64,000 nucleotides of DNA from Arthrobacter sp. AFG20 (lineage in GTDB: Bacteria > Actinomycetota > Actinomycetes > Actinomycetales > Micrococcaceae), in the NCBI RefSeq assembly GCF_002892795.1, contig NZ_PJMC01000011.1, positions 1 to 64,000 of the forward strand, in the 5' to 3' direction. A program made the position numbers and the translations under genes. The first letter of the stretch is position 1. The number at the start of each line of letters is the position of its first letter. This document shows, piece by piece, positions 9,916 through 46,695 of this stretch. Under the pieces are notes generated by a model. It was not told the DNA's origin, did not search any database, and saw nothing but the letters and a program-made list of their open reading frames with translations.

Positions 9916-10146
9916 AGTTATCAATCCCTTCACCGGCAGGTACGTGCCGGACGATCCGTAGTGAATGGTTCATGTAATTCAGTTATGCCCTACATGATGA
10001 CTCCCCGGCCGGGGCCGAGGAGCATCCAGTGACGCCGCACGGTTCCTGTGCGCCACATCACAAAGAAGAGTATGTCAGATTTATCGCAAATCGGACAAAA
10101 TGTTACGGACGTCACAGATGACATGCGTCACAGGGCATCCGCCGCG

Positions 10147-13718: not shown

Positions 13719-13792
13719 GCCTCCTTAGCTCAGTTGGCCAGAGCACCGCTCTTGTAAAGCGGGGGTCGTCGGTTCGAATCCGACAGGGGGCT
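13719..13792 (+). tRNA. tRNA-Thr (anticodon TGT)
   Basis: This is a 74-base cloverleaf. Acceptor GCCTCCT pairs with AGGGGGC, the D-arm is AGCTCAGTTGG, the anticodon loop is CTTGTAA with anticodon TGT, and the T-arm is GTCGGTTCGAATCCGAC. The discriminator is T at 13792 and no CCA is encoded. TGT reads ACA threonine codons. The accessory-looking stretch 13.8-23.3 kb begins directly after it, but no second copy of the tRNA 3' end was found to prove an integration site. Confidence 0.93.
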
Positions 13793-35082: not shown

Positions 35083-35283
35083 TTAGGCCGCCACGAGCGC
35101 GGTCCGGTTGATTGTTTCATATTCGATGGGCGTGAGTTTTCCCAGCCGTCTTTGCCGTCGCCGGCGGTGGTAGGTCCGCTCGATCCAGGTCGTGATGGCG
35201 AGGCGCAGTTCCTGTCTGGTGAGCCACCACTGACGGTCCAGGACGTTCTTTTGCTCTGGCGTCCAGGAGCTGTCATGTGGTCT
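35083..35283 (-). pseudogene. IS3 family transposase (OrfB) C-terminal remnant
   Basis: The frame encodes WWLTRQELRLAITTWIERTY followed by a basic run and LGKLTPIEYETINRTALVAA. This is the typical end of IS3-family OrfB integrases, whose RRRHSALGYLSPIEYE motif it resembles. Everything upstream, including the DDE residues, is gone. It abuts the tail of an IS481-type pseudogene, so later insertion or deletion cut it off. Confidence 0.75.
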
Positions 35284-35287
35284 AGAG

Positions 35288-35995
35288 CTAGGTGTATTGA
35301 CCTGAGAGGTTAGTGACGCGGCTGGCTGGTGGCTGACCTTTGAGTGAGGTGTGGCCTCGGTGATGATTGTAGTGATGGAGCCAGTCGGCAAAAGCGGCAA
35401 CACGCTCGGCCTCTGATGCATAGGGCTTGGCGTAGGCCCATCCATCGAGCATGGTGCGGTTGTAGCGCTCGACTTTGCCGTTGGTCTGTGGCCTGTACGG
35501 GCGGGTGCGTTTGTGCTTGATGTCTGGGCCAGGGCGTCCTTGAACGCGTAGGAGCGGTAGCAGGAGCCGTTGTCGGTCAGCACTCGTTTGACGGTGAAGC
35601 CGCAGGACTCAAAATAGGCGTTGGCGCGCGTCCAGAAACCGGCGGCGGTTTCCTTCTTCTCATCGGAAAGGATCTCGGTGTAGGCGAGCCGGGAGTGGTC
35701 GTCGACGGCGTTGTGCAGGAAGGCGTAGCCCGGTCACCGGTTCGGTGCCGTGCCGGTCTTGTTCCGTTTACCCGTAGCCCTACCCAGACTGCGGTGGCCG
35801 CCGCCGTCCGGGATCCGCTCCAGTTTCTTGATGTCCCTCACCGTGGTCCCGGTAGCGGCCAGCCCAGCGTGACGCGGTCGTTACCGATTCCTGGAACCGT
35901 TCAGCGGCCCGGCGCAGCGGCCATCCCTCCTCGACGACGCACTGGGCCAGCCTGAGCCTGCCCTTGGGCGTGAGGATCGCATTAGCATGGGACAT
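35288..35995 (-). pseudogene. IS481 family transposase, internally deleted and frameshifted
   Basis: The N-terminus begins MSHANAILTPKGRLRLAQCV and runs to GRYRDHGE. A deletion of some 75 codons then joins it to DIKKLERIPDGGGHRSLGRA. After an internal stop near 35730 it continues AVDDHSRLAYTEI and RVLTDNGSCYRSYAFKDALA. One more frame change near 35525 leads to HKRTRPYRPQTNGKVERYNR and the family tail RVTNLSGQYT at 35288. Normal length would be about 315-390 codons. It is inactive. Confidence 0.8.
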
Positions 35996-36015
35996 GACAC
36001 TCCTATAGACATTTT

Positions 36016-37077
36016 TCAAGTAATGCCCGGTTCGTTTATGCGGAGTGTTTGCACGAGGACAGGGAAGACTTGGCGTGCGATGTAGCGCTTGAGGCAGCGC
36101 ATGATTTCCTTCTTGCCGAGACCTTCGGCCGTTCGTCTGGCGACGTAGTCTTTGGTTGGCTGGTGGTATCTCATCCTGACCAGCACGATGTGGTGAAGAG
36201 CCGAGTTGGCTTTACGATCACCACCCCGGTTTAGACGGTTCCGTTCTGTCTTCCCTGATGAAGCAGGCCGTGGGCAAGTGCCGGTCAGGGCTGCGAATTG
36301 GTTCTCGCTTCTTAGGCGTGCCGTGTTGTCGCCGGCGGTGATGAGCAGTTGGCTTCCGGTATCAGGGCCGGATCCGAAGACGTTCATGAGGCCGGGTGCG
36401 TGGGCTTTCAGGAGACGATCGATTTGAGCCGTGAGATCCCGGACCTGCTCATCAAGTTCCTGGTAGCGCTTCGCCAGCAGACGAAGCGCGTAGCGGGTGC
36501 ATTCTTCCGAGGTGACAGGCTGCCGCTGGGGACGGGTGGCAGCCAACGCCGCGACGAGCCGCGGTGTTGTCAACGACCGGTATGGTGAGCGCACGTTCTC
36601 AGGGGCACTGACGAGCATGGCTTTGATCTGGTTGATGGTTGCGGTGCGGTCGCGCAGCGCAGACTCGCGGACCGTCCGCAGGCTTCGCAGGGCTTCGACG
36701 AGCCCGTTGCGGCCCTTCGGTGCGGAACTGGCCCTGCCGCTCATGACCGCTTCGGCGGCGCTGTAGGCATCGAGCTGATCCGTCTTTCCTCGCCGCCGGC
36801 GTTGATCACGGCTCGGGCTGTTCACCTCAACAACCTCGAATTTTGCTGTCGCCAGTTGCCGGGTAATTTCTGCGCCGTAGCTGCCCGTGCATTCAACTCC
36901 GATGCCAAGAGCGTTGCCGTTGGCGCGGATGAACTCGATAATCTTCCGGTATCCACCGGCGGTCGCTGGAAACTCCTGGTCCGTCAGTTGACGACCGTGC
37001 TCGTCGGTAACGGCCACGTAGTGGGTTTCCGCGTGGGTATCTATCCCCACATACACGTTGGGGCTTTTGCGTTGCAT
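36016..37077 (-). CDS. IS110 family transposase (DEDD/serine type)
   Basis: This 353-residue transposase looks complete. An N-terminal DEDD RuvC-like domain begins VYVGIDTHAETHYVAVTDEHG and contains GVECTGSYG and KTDQLDAYSAAEAV. A C-terminal Tnp2 domain contains GPDTGSQLLITAGDN and ALTGTCPRPASSGKTERNRL, where the serine after PAS is the candidate nucleophile. ATG 37077 is chosen; TTG 37107 is an alternative. It sits about 20 bp from the start of the IS481 remnant, suggesting insertion next to it. IS110 elements use a structured bridge RNA encoded in a non-coding end, and a 421-bp gap lies upstream. Confidence 0.85.
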   Translation of the reverse strand: MQRKSPNVYVGIDTHAETHYVAVTDEHGRQLTDQEFPATAGGYRKIIEFIRANGNALGIGVECTGSYGAEITRQLATAKFEVVEVNSPSRDQRRRRGKTDQLDAYSAAEAVMSGRASSAPKGRNGLVEALRSLRTVRESALRDRTATINQIKAMLVSAPENVRSPYRSLTTPRLVAALAATRPQRQPVTSEECTRYALRLLAKRYQELDEQVRDLTAQIDRLLKAHAPGLMNVFGSGPDTGSQLLITAGDNTARLRSENQFAALTGTCPRPASSGKTERNRLNRGGDRKANSALHHIVLVRMRYHQPTKDYVARRTAEGLGKKEIMRCLKRYIARQVFPVLVQTLRINEPGIT

Positions 37078-37498
37078 GATGGTTCTAGCGCACCTTTCCG
37101 TTTTCAATGGGGGGTGCGCGGCCGGGCGGGTATGCCAGTCAGTTCACTATTGGGACGCTTGTCAGACTCCTATCAGGACATGGCAGCCTGCCCGGCCACG
37201 CCTCTTGTGAGGCTGGCCGATCGGCAGGTCATGTCGAGGACAACTCCCACCCGTCGAGACGGAAGGGCGCGTCAGAAGACCTCTGGGCCAGACCGGCAAC
37301 CCCGGGAGCATTCTTCTCCTCTCCCGCATGCCAGGCCGGCTGCCATGCCGTTAGTCAGGCCAGAACTTCTTGACCCTCACACACCAATAGTGAAGACCTC
37401 CTTGTGGATCGGACTCTAGACAAGCCCCACTCCACTCGGAGGTCTTCTTCTTGTCACCTATCCACGCCGACCGTTCCTAACGTCCGTGGGTATTACAG
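37078..37498. other. non-coding region upstream of IS110, candidate bridge-RNA end
   Basis: No gene is seen in these 421 bases. Inverted segments stand out: TTCACTATTGG (37143-37153) with CCAATAGTGAA (37384-37394), and GAAGACCTCC (37392-37401) with GGAGGTCTTC (37438-37447). These could fold into a long-range stem and a 10-bp hairpin. The IS110 left end should lie somewhere here. Element ends cannot be fixed because this family lacks terminal inverted repeats. Confidence 0.4.
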
Positions 37499-37846
37499 CT
37501 AGTCCGCGTCAATCTCCTCCAGCAAGTCCTTTGCGGCCTTGCGGATGTCGTCGTGGTCGTACTGCGCCGCCCGGCTCTCCAGCGAAATAATGGCGCAGCG
37601 GTGGACCTTATTAAGGTCCCCGATAGGAAAGCTCACGCTGCCCTTGGTGCCCTCGGATTTCTCCTTATCAATGCCGAGATGCCACTTCGAGAACTCGTCG
37701 AAGCCGTGCTTGTCGATAAAGGAGTTCTCGTCGTCCGCTGACGGCGCGTGTTCACTCCAGTCATCACGGACATCCCGCTCCACCTTCCCCTTCTTCACGA
37801 GGCTGCGTGCGTGCTCCAGTGCCTTGCGGTTCAGTTTCGTCGCCAT
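37499..37846 (-). CDS. conserved hypothetical protein, 115 residues
   Basis: This small, charged soluble protein has a conserved middle (SADDENSFIDKHGFDEFSKWHLGID) followed by SFPIGDLNKVHRCAIISLES and a C-terminal helix. Similar proteins are widespread in actinobacteria and rhizobia as uncharacterised, possibly stress-linked, proteins. GGAGG lies 6 bases before ATG 37846, so expression is likely. No function can be assigned. Confidence 0.7.
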   Translation of the reverse strand: MATKLNRKALEHARSLVKKGKVERDVRDDWSEHAPSADDENSFIDKHGFDEFSKWHLGIDKEKSEGTKGSVSFPIGDLNKVHRCAIISLESRAAQYDHDDIRKAAKDLLEEIDAD

Positions 37847-38358: not shown

Positions 38359-38661
38359 ATGGCTACCGACTACGACGCCCCACGCAAGACAGAAGAAGAG
38401 ACTCCCTCCGAGTCTCTGGAGGCCCTCCAGGCGTCCCGCGGCGGCGGCGCCCAGACCGCCGTCATCGACCTCGACGAGAACGACACCGCCGAGGGCATCG
38501 ACCTTCCGGGCGCCGATCTTTCCAACGAGGAACTGACGGTCATCGTCGTTCCCGAGCAGTCCGATGAGTTCACCTGTGGCTCCTGCTTCCTGGTCCGTCA
38601 CCGGTCCCAGGTAGCCAAGGAAAAGAACGGCCTGAAGTACTGCCACGACTGCGAAGGCTAA
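38359..38661 (+). CDS. DUF4193 protein (zinc-ribbon-like)
   Basis: This 100-residue acidic actinobacterial protein begins MATDYDAPRKTEEE. It carries two CxxC pairs near the C-terminus (Cys73-Cys76 in FTCGSCFLV, Cys95-Cys98 in KYCHDCEG) that probably bind zinc. Family members are conserved across actinobacteria, often near sigma-factor or RNA metabolism genes, but have no firm function. A strong terminator follows. Confidence 0.88.
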   Translation: MATDYDAPRKTEEETPSESLEALQASRGGGAQTAVIDLDENDTAEGIDLPGADLSNEELTVIVVPEQSDEFTCGSCFLVRHRSQVAKEKNGLKYCHDCEG

Positions 38662-38732: not shown

Positions 38733-38776
38733 GCGAGGCGCCGGCTCCCCACGGGGAGGCCGGCGCCTCGCTTTTT
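38733..38776 (+). terminator. terminator after the DUF4193 gene
   Basis: A 13-bp perfect stem GCGAGGCGCCGGC/GCCGGCGCCTCGC (38733-38745 with 38759-38771), extended by CCCC/GGGG inside, is followed by TTTTT at 38772-38776. Confidence 0.9.
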
Positions 38777-46319: not shown

Positions 46320-46446
46320 GCGCGGCCCGGGCCGCCCGTCGCCGGGGGTGTGCCAGCCCACGCCGCCACAGTTTGCAGACGCGAACCCGGCGTAGGACAA
46401 TGGCCTTTGTGACAGCTGTCACCGCTCAACTGAATATGCCTTTGAT

Positions 46447-46695
46447 CTGCGGCGGGAGAGTCCTGCAAGTAGGTACAAGCAGGCGCCGTAGGAGCAAAAC
46501 CTCCCCAGGAATCTCTCAGGCCCATGTACCGCCGCGGCAAGGCAACTCTGGAAAGCAGCAGGCTGCCCGCATTGAATGTTCCGCCACCGCGCGGACGGTT
46601 CAGGGCATGCTGTGCTCACCGACGGTGCAAGCGGAGCTGTGCGTAGGCACAGCAACGCGGAAACTCTCAGGTCCAATACAGAGCGGGGAGGAACC
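46447..46695 (+). ncRNA. tandem glycine riboswitch
   Basis: The first aptamer shows GGCGGGAGAGTCC, GCCGTAGGAGCAA, CTCCCC and AATCTCTCAGGCCC (46450-46560). The second shows CACCGACGGTGCAAGCGG, AACTCTCAGGTCC and ACAGAGCGGGGAGG (46617-46695). Both CTCTCAGG cores are diagnostic of the glycine aptamer. Its place 48 bp before gcvP indicates that glycine switches on the cleavage operon. The rest of the 423-bp gap 46320-46742 holds only the promoter area. Confidence 0.92.

What the first reader, a model, noticed from the sequence alone, without database searches (positions are those of the whole stretch)
37078..37447. Candidate bridge RNA region of the IS110 element
IS110 recombinases are guided by a structured non-coding RNA from an element end. 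The 421-bp gene-free stretch upstream of this transposase has inverted segments (37143-37153 with 37384-37394; 37392-37401 with 37438-37447) that could form a long-range stem and hairpin. The exact bridge RNA cannot be read by eye.
Basis: partly seen in the sequence, partly recalled or inferred. Interest (0 to 1): 0.5.

Follow-up and report, generated by a model that had tools for sequence, protein, structure and literature searches.

The report
Bridge RNA aimed at another transposon
A jumping gene in a bacterium related to Arthrobacter carries a probable guide RNA whose four guide segments can be read from the DNA; they indicate that it inserted between the ribosome-binding site and start codon of a different jumping gene, and close relatives carry the same RNA re-aimed at other jumping genes.

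Summary
Comparison with unoccupied IS481 elements and IS110 relatives puts the element at 35998-37391 (minus strand), flanked by a TC core. Four guides are readable in the left end: LTG 37283-37275 and RTG 37235-37229 match the target; LDG 37173-37166 and RDG 37153-37144 match the element's own ends. The 'hairpin' 37392-37447 lies outside the element: it is the leader hairpin of an IS481-family transposon, whose Shine-Dalgarno/ATG boundary is the target. Guides and flanks change together across relatives (LTG 6/5040, RTG 2/5040 permutations as good). TBL and DBL stems are 99.6% paired. In the 100/100-supported clade, 10 of 11 elements lie in or beside another IS (IS481, ISL3, IS256, ISAs1); three further members give 1 of 3. 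A second conserved stem uses the same RNA strand as the DBL stem, so the two exclude each other; its role is unexplained. Verdict: a new, unusually legible member of the known IS110 bridge-RNA system. Expression and activity are untested.

The parts
35998..37391 (-). IS110 element (left end at 37391, right end at 35998), 1394 bp without the core copy
   Evidence: Homologous unoccupied IS481 elements join directly what flanks it here; relatives L006/L036. No empty allele of this very locus was found
37392..37393 (.). TC core, left copy
   Evidence: Shared by left and right junctions; TC at both junctions also in relatives L007, L043, L137, L138, L141, L142
35996..35997 (.). TC core, right copy
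36019..37107 (-). IS110 transposase/recombinase reading frame (363 codons from TTG 37107; ATG at 37077 gives 353)
   Evidence: Pfam PF01548 and PF02371; IS621 8wt6 E 1.4e-12 with D, E, D, D and the S of the SG motif aligned
37116..37353 (-). Bridge RNA region covered by model R1 (TBL + DBL + 5' arm)
   Evidence: R1 194.5 bits; the model was built from an alignment that includes this copy
37219..37294 (-). Target-binding loop (TBL): outer stem, LTG, inner stem-loop, RTG
   Evidence: Helices 1 and 2, 100% of cells paired
37275..37283 (-). Left target guide GAGGTCTTC (last two nt = core)
   Evidence: Identical to target 37400-37392
37229..37235 (-). Right target guide GACATGA
   Evidence: Reverse complement of target TCATGTC at 35997-35991
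37134..37184 (-). Donor-binding loop (DBL)
   Evidence: Helix 3 (98.7% paired; one pair U-A/C-G with both sides changed in 4 of 11 rows)
37166..37173 (-). Left donor guide ATAGGAGT
   Evidence: Identical to right end ATAGGAGT(G)TC; the base before the core is mismatched
37144..37153 (-).
   Evidence: Reverse complement of TCACTATTGG at 37393-37384
37330..37347 (-). 5' arm of an alternative 18-nt stem with 37179-37196, exclusive with the DBL stem
35293..37497 (-). Host IS481-family element, degenerate, interrupted by the IS110; ends TGTAATACC.../...GTCAATACA
   Evidence: ends read by eye; its transposase matches the L035 IS481 protein in broken pieces
37392..37447 (-). IS481 leader hairpin; its 3' arm contains AAGGAGGT (Shine-Dalgarno-like). 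Supplies the left target
   Evidence: Present upstream of the start codon in unoccupied copies; fold z -5.83
35993..35995 (-). ATG of the IS481 transposase, now directly after the IS110 right end and core

Best explanation
The left end of this IS110-group element encodes a bridge RNA. Its target-binding loop pairs through GAGGTCTTC and GACATGA with the two strands of the Shine-Dalgarno/ATG boundary of an IS481-family transposase leader. Its donor-binding loop pairs through ATAGGAGT and CCAATAGTGA with the element's own right and left ends. Held this way, the DEDD-serine recombinase joins circular element and target at a TC core, inserting between the IS481 ribosome-binding site and its start codon. 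Shown here by sequence: element boundaries, guide/flank matches, guide/flank covariation across relatives, paired stems, recombinase homology. [quoted passage not shown]
For: In 29 unoccupied IS481 loci the hairpin leader runs into the start of the transposase with no insert; 24 of 29 hold GAGGTCTTCA and 6 of 29 the whole predicted site GAGGTCTTCATGTCCC. All four guides occur in the LE in the IS621 order; in 20,000 shuffles LTG appears in 24, RTG 349, LDG 35, RDG 3, all four in order 0. Guide-flank covariation: LTG 44 of 49 non-core positions vs permuted mean 33.7, 6 of 5040 permutations as good; RTG 33 of 42 vs 15.7, 2 of 5040. RDG complementary to an LE end in 69 of 95 loci vs shuffle mean 1.4, maximum 6. 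TBL+DBL helices: 99.6% of cells paired over 11 rows, covariation 0.284 vs 0.169, both 0 of 500 shuffles. IS621 homology.
Against: The core is TC, not the CT of IS621 and near relatives. LDG mismatches its end at the base before the core. Only 6 of 29 IS481 leaders carry the whole predicted site; 17 of 29 have one extra A after TTCA, and no empty allele of the same locus was found. LTG has one mismatch outside the core in L137 and in L141. In one search two of five measures are weak against shuffles: pairs with both sides changed (5; 39 of 500 as high) and further pair types (14; 66 of 500). No Rfam match to 37000-37520 up to E 5. Folding of TBL alone (z -1.28) and DBL alone (z -0.12) is unremarkable, and the minimum-energy fold of the whole LE prefers the competing long stem. 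Guide lengths and positions were fixed after the matches had been seen; permutation does not remove relatedness. 26 of 95 loci fail the RDG-LE test. The element is single-copy by DNA in this genome and no transcript or movement was observed.
Confidence: 0.92

Rival explanations
1. One reading: 37143-37153 pairs with 37384-37394 as a long-range stem of the bridge RNA, and 37392-37447 is one of its hairpins.
For: Both pairs are exact, and the whole-LE fold is fairly stable (z -2.07, 5 of 200 shuffles as good).
Against: 37392-37447 is outside the element and occurs upstream of IS481 start codons with no IS110 present. The arm at 37384-37393 is the element tip that RDG matches in IS621-like fashion; a guide-end match of this kind recurs in 69 of 95 loci. 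The whole-LE fold, taken from 37391, leaves the tip ACUAUU unpaired.
Confidence: 0.03
2. The left end acts only as DNA (repeats bound by the recombinase); no RNA guide is involved and the matches to the target are chance.
For: No transcript evidence; the strongest repeat (37179-37196/37330-37347) could be a DNA inverted repeat.
Against: Guide-flank covariation and compensatory pairs; members of this family are shown experimentally to use bridge/seek RNA (PMC11208160, PMC11187229, passages read).
Confidence: 0.03
3. Compatible with the best explanation rather than instead of it: the bridge RNA worked in ancestors, but this copy is a relic that no longer moves.
For: Single copy by DNA; host IS481 transposase broken; the two nearest relatives are damaged (L006 lacks the last 12 nt of LE; L036 transposase frame broken).
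Against: Both ends, all guides, the 363-codon frame and the catalytic residues are present here.
Confidence: 0.4

Closest known systems
IS621 bridge RNA (IS110 group; PMC11208160: one section and passages; PMC11208158: passages)
   Same: RNA in the LE; TBL then DBL; 5' side of each loop equals the left top strand and the 3' side complements the right top strand; core included in guides; the base after RTG and after RDG can pair with position 7 of the other DNA (handshake); a -35-like TTGA box in RE near the junction
   Different: TC core instead of CT; a 5' arm complementary to the DBL stem strand (LE about 60-80 nt longer than in the sister clade); target is another IS
seekRNA of ISEc21 and IS1111 elements (PMC11187229, abstract and passages)
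   Same: Upstream non-coding region in the IS110 type; guide order of the IS110 type; natural re-direction between relatives (ISEc11/ISXne4, IS1111 type) has been described
   Different: Different targets; the element here was not tested experimentally
IS4321/IS5075 in Tn21-family terminal repeats (title seen in the reference list of PMC11187229)
   Same: A DEDD element that targets the end of another mobile element
   Different: IS1111 type; one victim family named in the title, whereas the clade here spans IS481, ISL3, IS256 and ISAs1
IS900 (PMC8141618, passages)
   Same: Target motif CATGN6TCTCCTT, whose reverse complement reads AAGGAGA-N6-CATG, i.e. a Shine-Dalgarno/ATG-like boundary as here (this reading is mine)
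   Different: The passages seen do not treat guides; victims there are neighbours of ordinary genes

Membership tests
IS110 family, IS110 group | DEDD RuvC-like domain plus C-terminal Tnp domain with catalytic serine | tested here: met
   Pfam PF01548, PF02371; alignment to 8wt6
IS110 family, IS110 group | Long non-coding LE upstream of tnp, short RE | tested here: met
   314 nt from LE end to ATG 37077; 18 nt after the stop codon
IS110 bridge RNA system | TBL upstream of DBL with guides in IS110 order, matching target and own ends | tested here: met
IS110 bridge RNA system | Conserved stems with compensatory changes | tested here: met
   99.6% paired, 5 of 21 pairs with both sides changed; two of the five measures are weak against shuffles
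IS110 bridge RNA system | CT core dinucleotide as in IS621 and near relatives | tested here: not met
   Core is TC in the window and in L007, L043, L137, L138, L141, L142. A feature of IS621 and related orthologues, not a definition of the family
IS110 bridge RNA system | Promoter reconstituted at the RE-LE junction | tested here: inconclusive
   In 9 of 9 elements with a readable RE (some near-identical, two without LE) a TTGA-type hexamer ends 17-19 nt before the end of the core; the -10-like CAYTAT is weak
IS110 bridge RNA system | RNA expressed and bound by the recombinase; programmable recombination | not testable with these tools
   needs experiment
IS1111 group | bRNA downstream of tnp, long RE | tested here: not met
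   RE is short and the RNA is upstream

The most novel reading that the evidence does not exclude
The clade is a lineage of IS110 elements specialised as parasites of other insertion sequences, which changes victim by rewriting only the two target guides. In addition its bridge RNA has a two-state fold: a conserved 5' arm pairs with the strand needed for the donor-loop stem, so the full-length transcript may be held inactive until it is processed or refolded.
Probability: 0.3. Interest if true: 0.7.

Novelty: new member of a known kind. Interest (0 to 1): 0.5.

Why it matters
It is a natural case where every guide of a bridge RNA can be read from DNA and checked against homologous empty sites. 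The clade offers a natural series of re-targeted bridge RNAs (different victims, same scaffold, TC core), useful for learning which scaffold positions must stay fixed when guides change. If the strand-sharing stem is real, it would point to regulation of bridge RNA folding. The Shine-Dalgarno/ATG target in a transposase leader also shows how one transposon can exploit the conserved expression signal of another.

Tried and rejected
Rfam: the window gave only tRNA, msiK and glycine riboswitch, all elsewhere, and 37000-37520 nothing up to E 5.

First boundary guess: from L006 alone I put the LE end at 37379 and searched the resulting empty junction (0 of 206 genomes at up to 2 mismatches; none in plasmids). 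Wrong, because the L006 left end lacks 12 nt; corrected with L036 and the unoccupied IS481 elements.

Alignment A1 had two rows on the wrong strand and was discarded for A2.

Core CT: rejected, since TC is what both junctions share across relatives. Junction promoter: suggestive only.

Whether the IS110 right end (AGGAG, four nt before the IS481 ATG) gives the victim transposase a new ribosome-binding site: not tested; the window's IS481 is broken in any case.

At E 1e-110 the class-level protein search matched only G000 of 394 genomes and the order-level one 5 of 396, so the clade is thinly spread in what is held.

Rows dropped: the non-redundant permutation sets left out L006 (no LE), L036 and L138 (guides shared with another row), L139 from LTG (no LE), L038 and L036 from RTG (no RE). 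In one search L012, L087, L107 and L136 were left out because the LDG anchor was misplaced, and loci with under 230 nt upstream or without an LDG hit were left out. Plasmid hits H21, H22 and H24 (same identity as the L142 element) were not fetched; L046 (63-residue match) and L154 (right donor guide lost) are not in the victim count.

One search scanned 10 proteins, nine of them picked by eye from the 39 right-flank frames, so it is no unbiased survey of victims outside the clade.

Literature: no paper describing an IS110 aimed at an IS481 leader was seen in the listings; this is an open-access library only.

Full report
SETTING. The transposase 36019-37107 (minus) is IS110 (Pfam PF01548 E 9e-29, PF02371 E 1.2e-16). 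By DNA it is single-copy; by protein three distant relatives (41%, 37%, 25%) lie elsewhere in the genome.

OBSERVATION. Both inverted pairs are exact. An exact inverted repeat of 11 nt or more occurs in 18 of 1000 dinucleotide shuffles of the same 370 bases, 10 or more in 69 of 1000.

BOUNDARIES. L036 (Arthrobacter sp. 260) shares the left end out to GAGGTCTTC and then diverges. The IS481-like sequence that follows the right end matches 43 of 206 genomes. In the 29 unoccupied loci fetched and read, a hairpin leader runs straight into the start of the IS481 transposase (two of them show GTG or CTG in place of ATG). 24 of 29 hold GAGGTCTTCA; 6 have GAGGTCTTCATGTCCC, 17 have one extra A before the start codon. 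In the window the IS110 element sits at that point: GAGGTCT-TC-ACTATTGG...ATAGGAGTG-TC-ATGTCCC. Element 35998-37391; core TC. These are homologous elements, not an empty allele of this locus. That such hairpins shield a transposase from read-through transcription is recalled, not tested. IS481 ends at 37497 and 35293, with ACTAGC / CCTAGC outside, were read by eye; the NCTAGN preference of IS481 is recalled.

GUIDES. [quoted passage not shown] PMC11208158 passages). Read this way, the LE has LTG GAGGTCTTC (37283-37275), RTG GACATGA (37235-37229), LDG ATAGGAGT (37173-37166; the base before the core is mismatched, then T matches) and RDG CCAATAGTGA (37153-37144). In 20,000 shuffles of the LE they appear in 24, 349, 35 and 3, and in order never; lengths were chosen after seeing the matches. 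The base after RTG is C (donor position 7 is G) and the base after RDG is A (target position 7 is T): both fit the handshake pairing of PMC11208158. The base after RTG is C in 10 of 11 clade rows.

COVARIATION. Eleven clade elements were aligned. Matching LTG/LT pairs: GAGGTCTTC (window), CGGCACTTC (L043), GACTATTC (L038), GGCTCTTC (L007, L138), CGGCTCTTC (L142); L137 and L141 have one mismatch within the last eight positions. RTG matches: GACATGA, CCGTGA, ATCCGA, TTACGA, TCTGTGA, CTGCGA. Non-redundant permutation tests, seven rows each: LTG 44/49 vs mean 33.7, 6 of 5040; RTG 33/42 vs 15.7, 2 of 5040; the 9-row LTG set gave 57/63 vs 43.2, 72 of 362,880. Relatedness is not removed by permutation. 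Two elements found afterwards by the RNA model (L149, L151) match their left flank at 7 of 8 and 8 of 8 LTG positions, core included; their right ends were not found. Across the wider family, an RDG-to-LE-end complement of 8 nt or more exists in 69 of 95 loci (67 of 85 distinct) against a shuffle mean of 1.4 and maximum of 6; the 26 misses are listed there and include the truncated L006/L035.

STRUCTURE. With TBL outer and inner stems and the DBL stem, 99.6% of 230 cells pair and covariation is 0.284 against 0.169 (0 of 500 shuffles each), at most 0.075 in slid versions; 5 of 21 pairs have both sides changed (39 of 500 shuffles as high) and there are 14 further pair types (66 of 500). RNAalifold joins the TBL instead with a 12-bp stem between a 5' arm and the 5' strand of the DBL stem: 100% of 283 cells paired, 6 of 26 pairs with both sides changed (9 of 500), covariation 0.335 vs 0.230 (0 of 500). 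Columns 178-185 serve both stems, so they cannot coexist. The left ends of the sister clade are 60-80 nt shorter. I read the DBL stem as the active form, from IS621 anatomy, and leave the other as a possible inactive form. Model R1 finds the window copy at 194.5 bits (trained on it; next best in the window 11.6 bits) and matches 63 of 206 genomes at E 1e-6, only a few at clade-level scores.

VICTIMS. The clade is supported 100/100 (11 of 31 rows; L043 row half filled). In or beside another IS: window, L035 (= L006) and L036, IS481; L007 and L142, ISL3 transposases (PF01610) with a matching terminal repeat at the far side; L137, ISL3 transposase match E 6e-30; L138, in a 364-bp derivative holding both ends of the L137 element (88.5% over 270 and 82% over 95 bp); L139, right flank 69.6% identical to that of L137 over 381 bp; L043, 173 bp from an IS256-type gene (PF00872) and L038, 17 bp from a frame with PF13808 (that this is ISAs1 is recalled). 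L141 is undecided. That is 10 of 11, with L043 and L038 resting on adjacency. Three more members not in the tree: L151 beside an ISL3 match E 6e-36; L149 and L037, no IS found with the proteins at hand. Total 11 of 14. Outside the clade transposase domains were found at the right flank of L118, L119, L120, L126 and L127, ordinary domains at L009 and L030, none at L021 and L135 (flanks picked by eye), so the habit is not unique to the clade.

NOVELTY. Bridge RNAs, natural re-direction (PMC11187229) and DEDD elements aimed at other transposons (IS4321/IS5075, title only) are known; IS900 has a Shine-Dalgarno/ATG-like motif (PMC8141618). New here are this element's guides, its IS481 leader target, the range of victims in one clade, the TC core and the exclusive stems.

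Noticed in passing
window 37330-37347 with 37179-37196 (A2 columns 7-18 / 174-185): A conserved, covarying long stem shares its 3' strand with the donor-loop stem; the two are mutually exclusive.
   Followed up: partly
L121, L124-L130 right flanks: A different IS110 clade (RE AAGGAGAGCATC) is inserted at equivalent codons (GSQF/GFQY region) of IS3-like integrase genes in seven loci (L121, L125-L130), with a short match in L124.
   Followed up: partly
L119, L120 and L118 right flanks: Other IS110s adjoin Transposase_mut (L119, L120) and rve-type (L118) fragments.
   Followed up: partly
L138 right flank: A 364-bp derivative carrying both ends of the ISL3-type element seen in L137, a MITE-like form, hosts an IS110.
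   Followed up: partly
window 35993-36018: The right end places AGGAG four nt before the IS481 ATG, which starts about 20 nt after the IS110 stop codon: a possible new ribosome-binding site and translational coupling.
   Followed up: no
window 35086-35290: Fragment resembling the C-terminal part of another integrase-type transposase (rve_2, E 1.6e-4) directly after the IS481 right end.
   Followed up: no
window 9918-9976 (-), 46443-46541 (+), 13719-13792 (+): Rfam matches: msiK RNA, glycine riboswitch, tRNA.
   Followed up: no
window 38733-38771: Strong inverted repeat (18 nt, 89%, 3-nt loop), terminator-like, after a small ORF ending at 38661.
   Followed up: no
L154 (G187:C31): Truncated bridge RNA of the clade with guide GGCCCTTC next to an ISL3 fragment; right donor guide lost.
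   Followed up: partly
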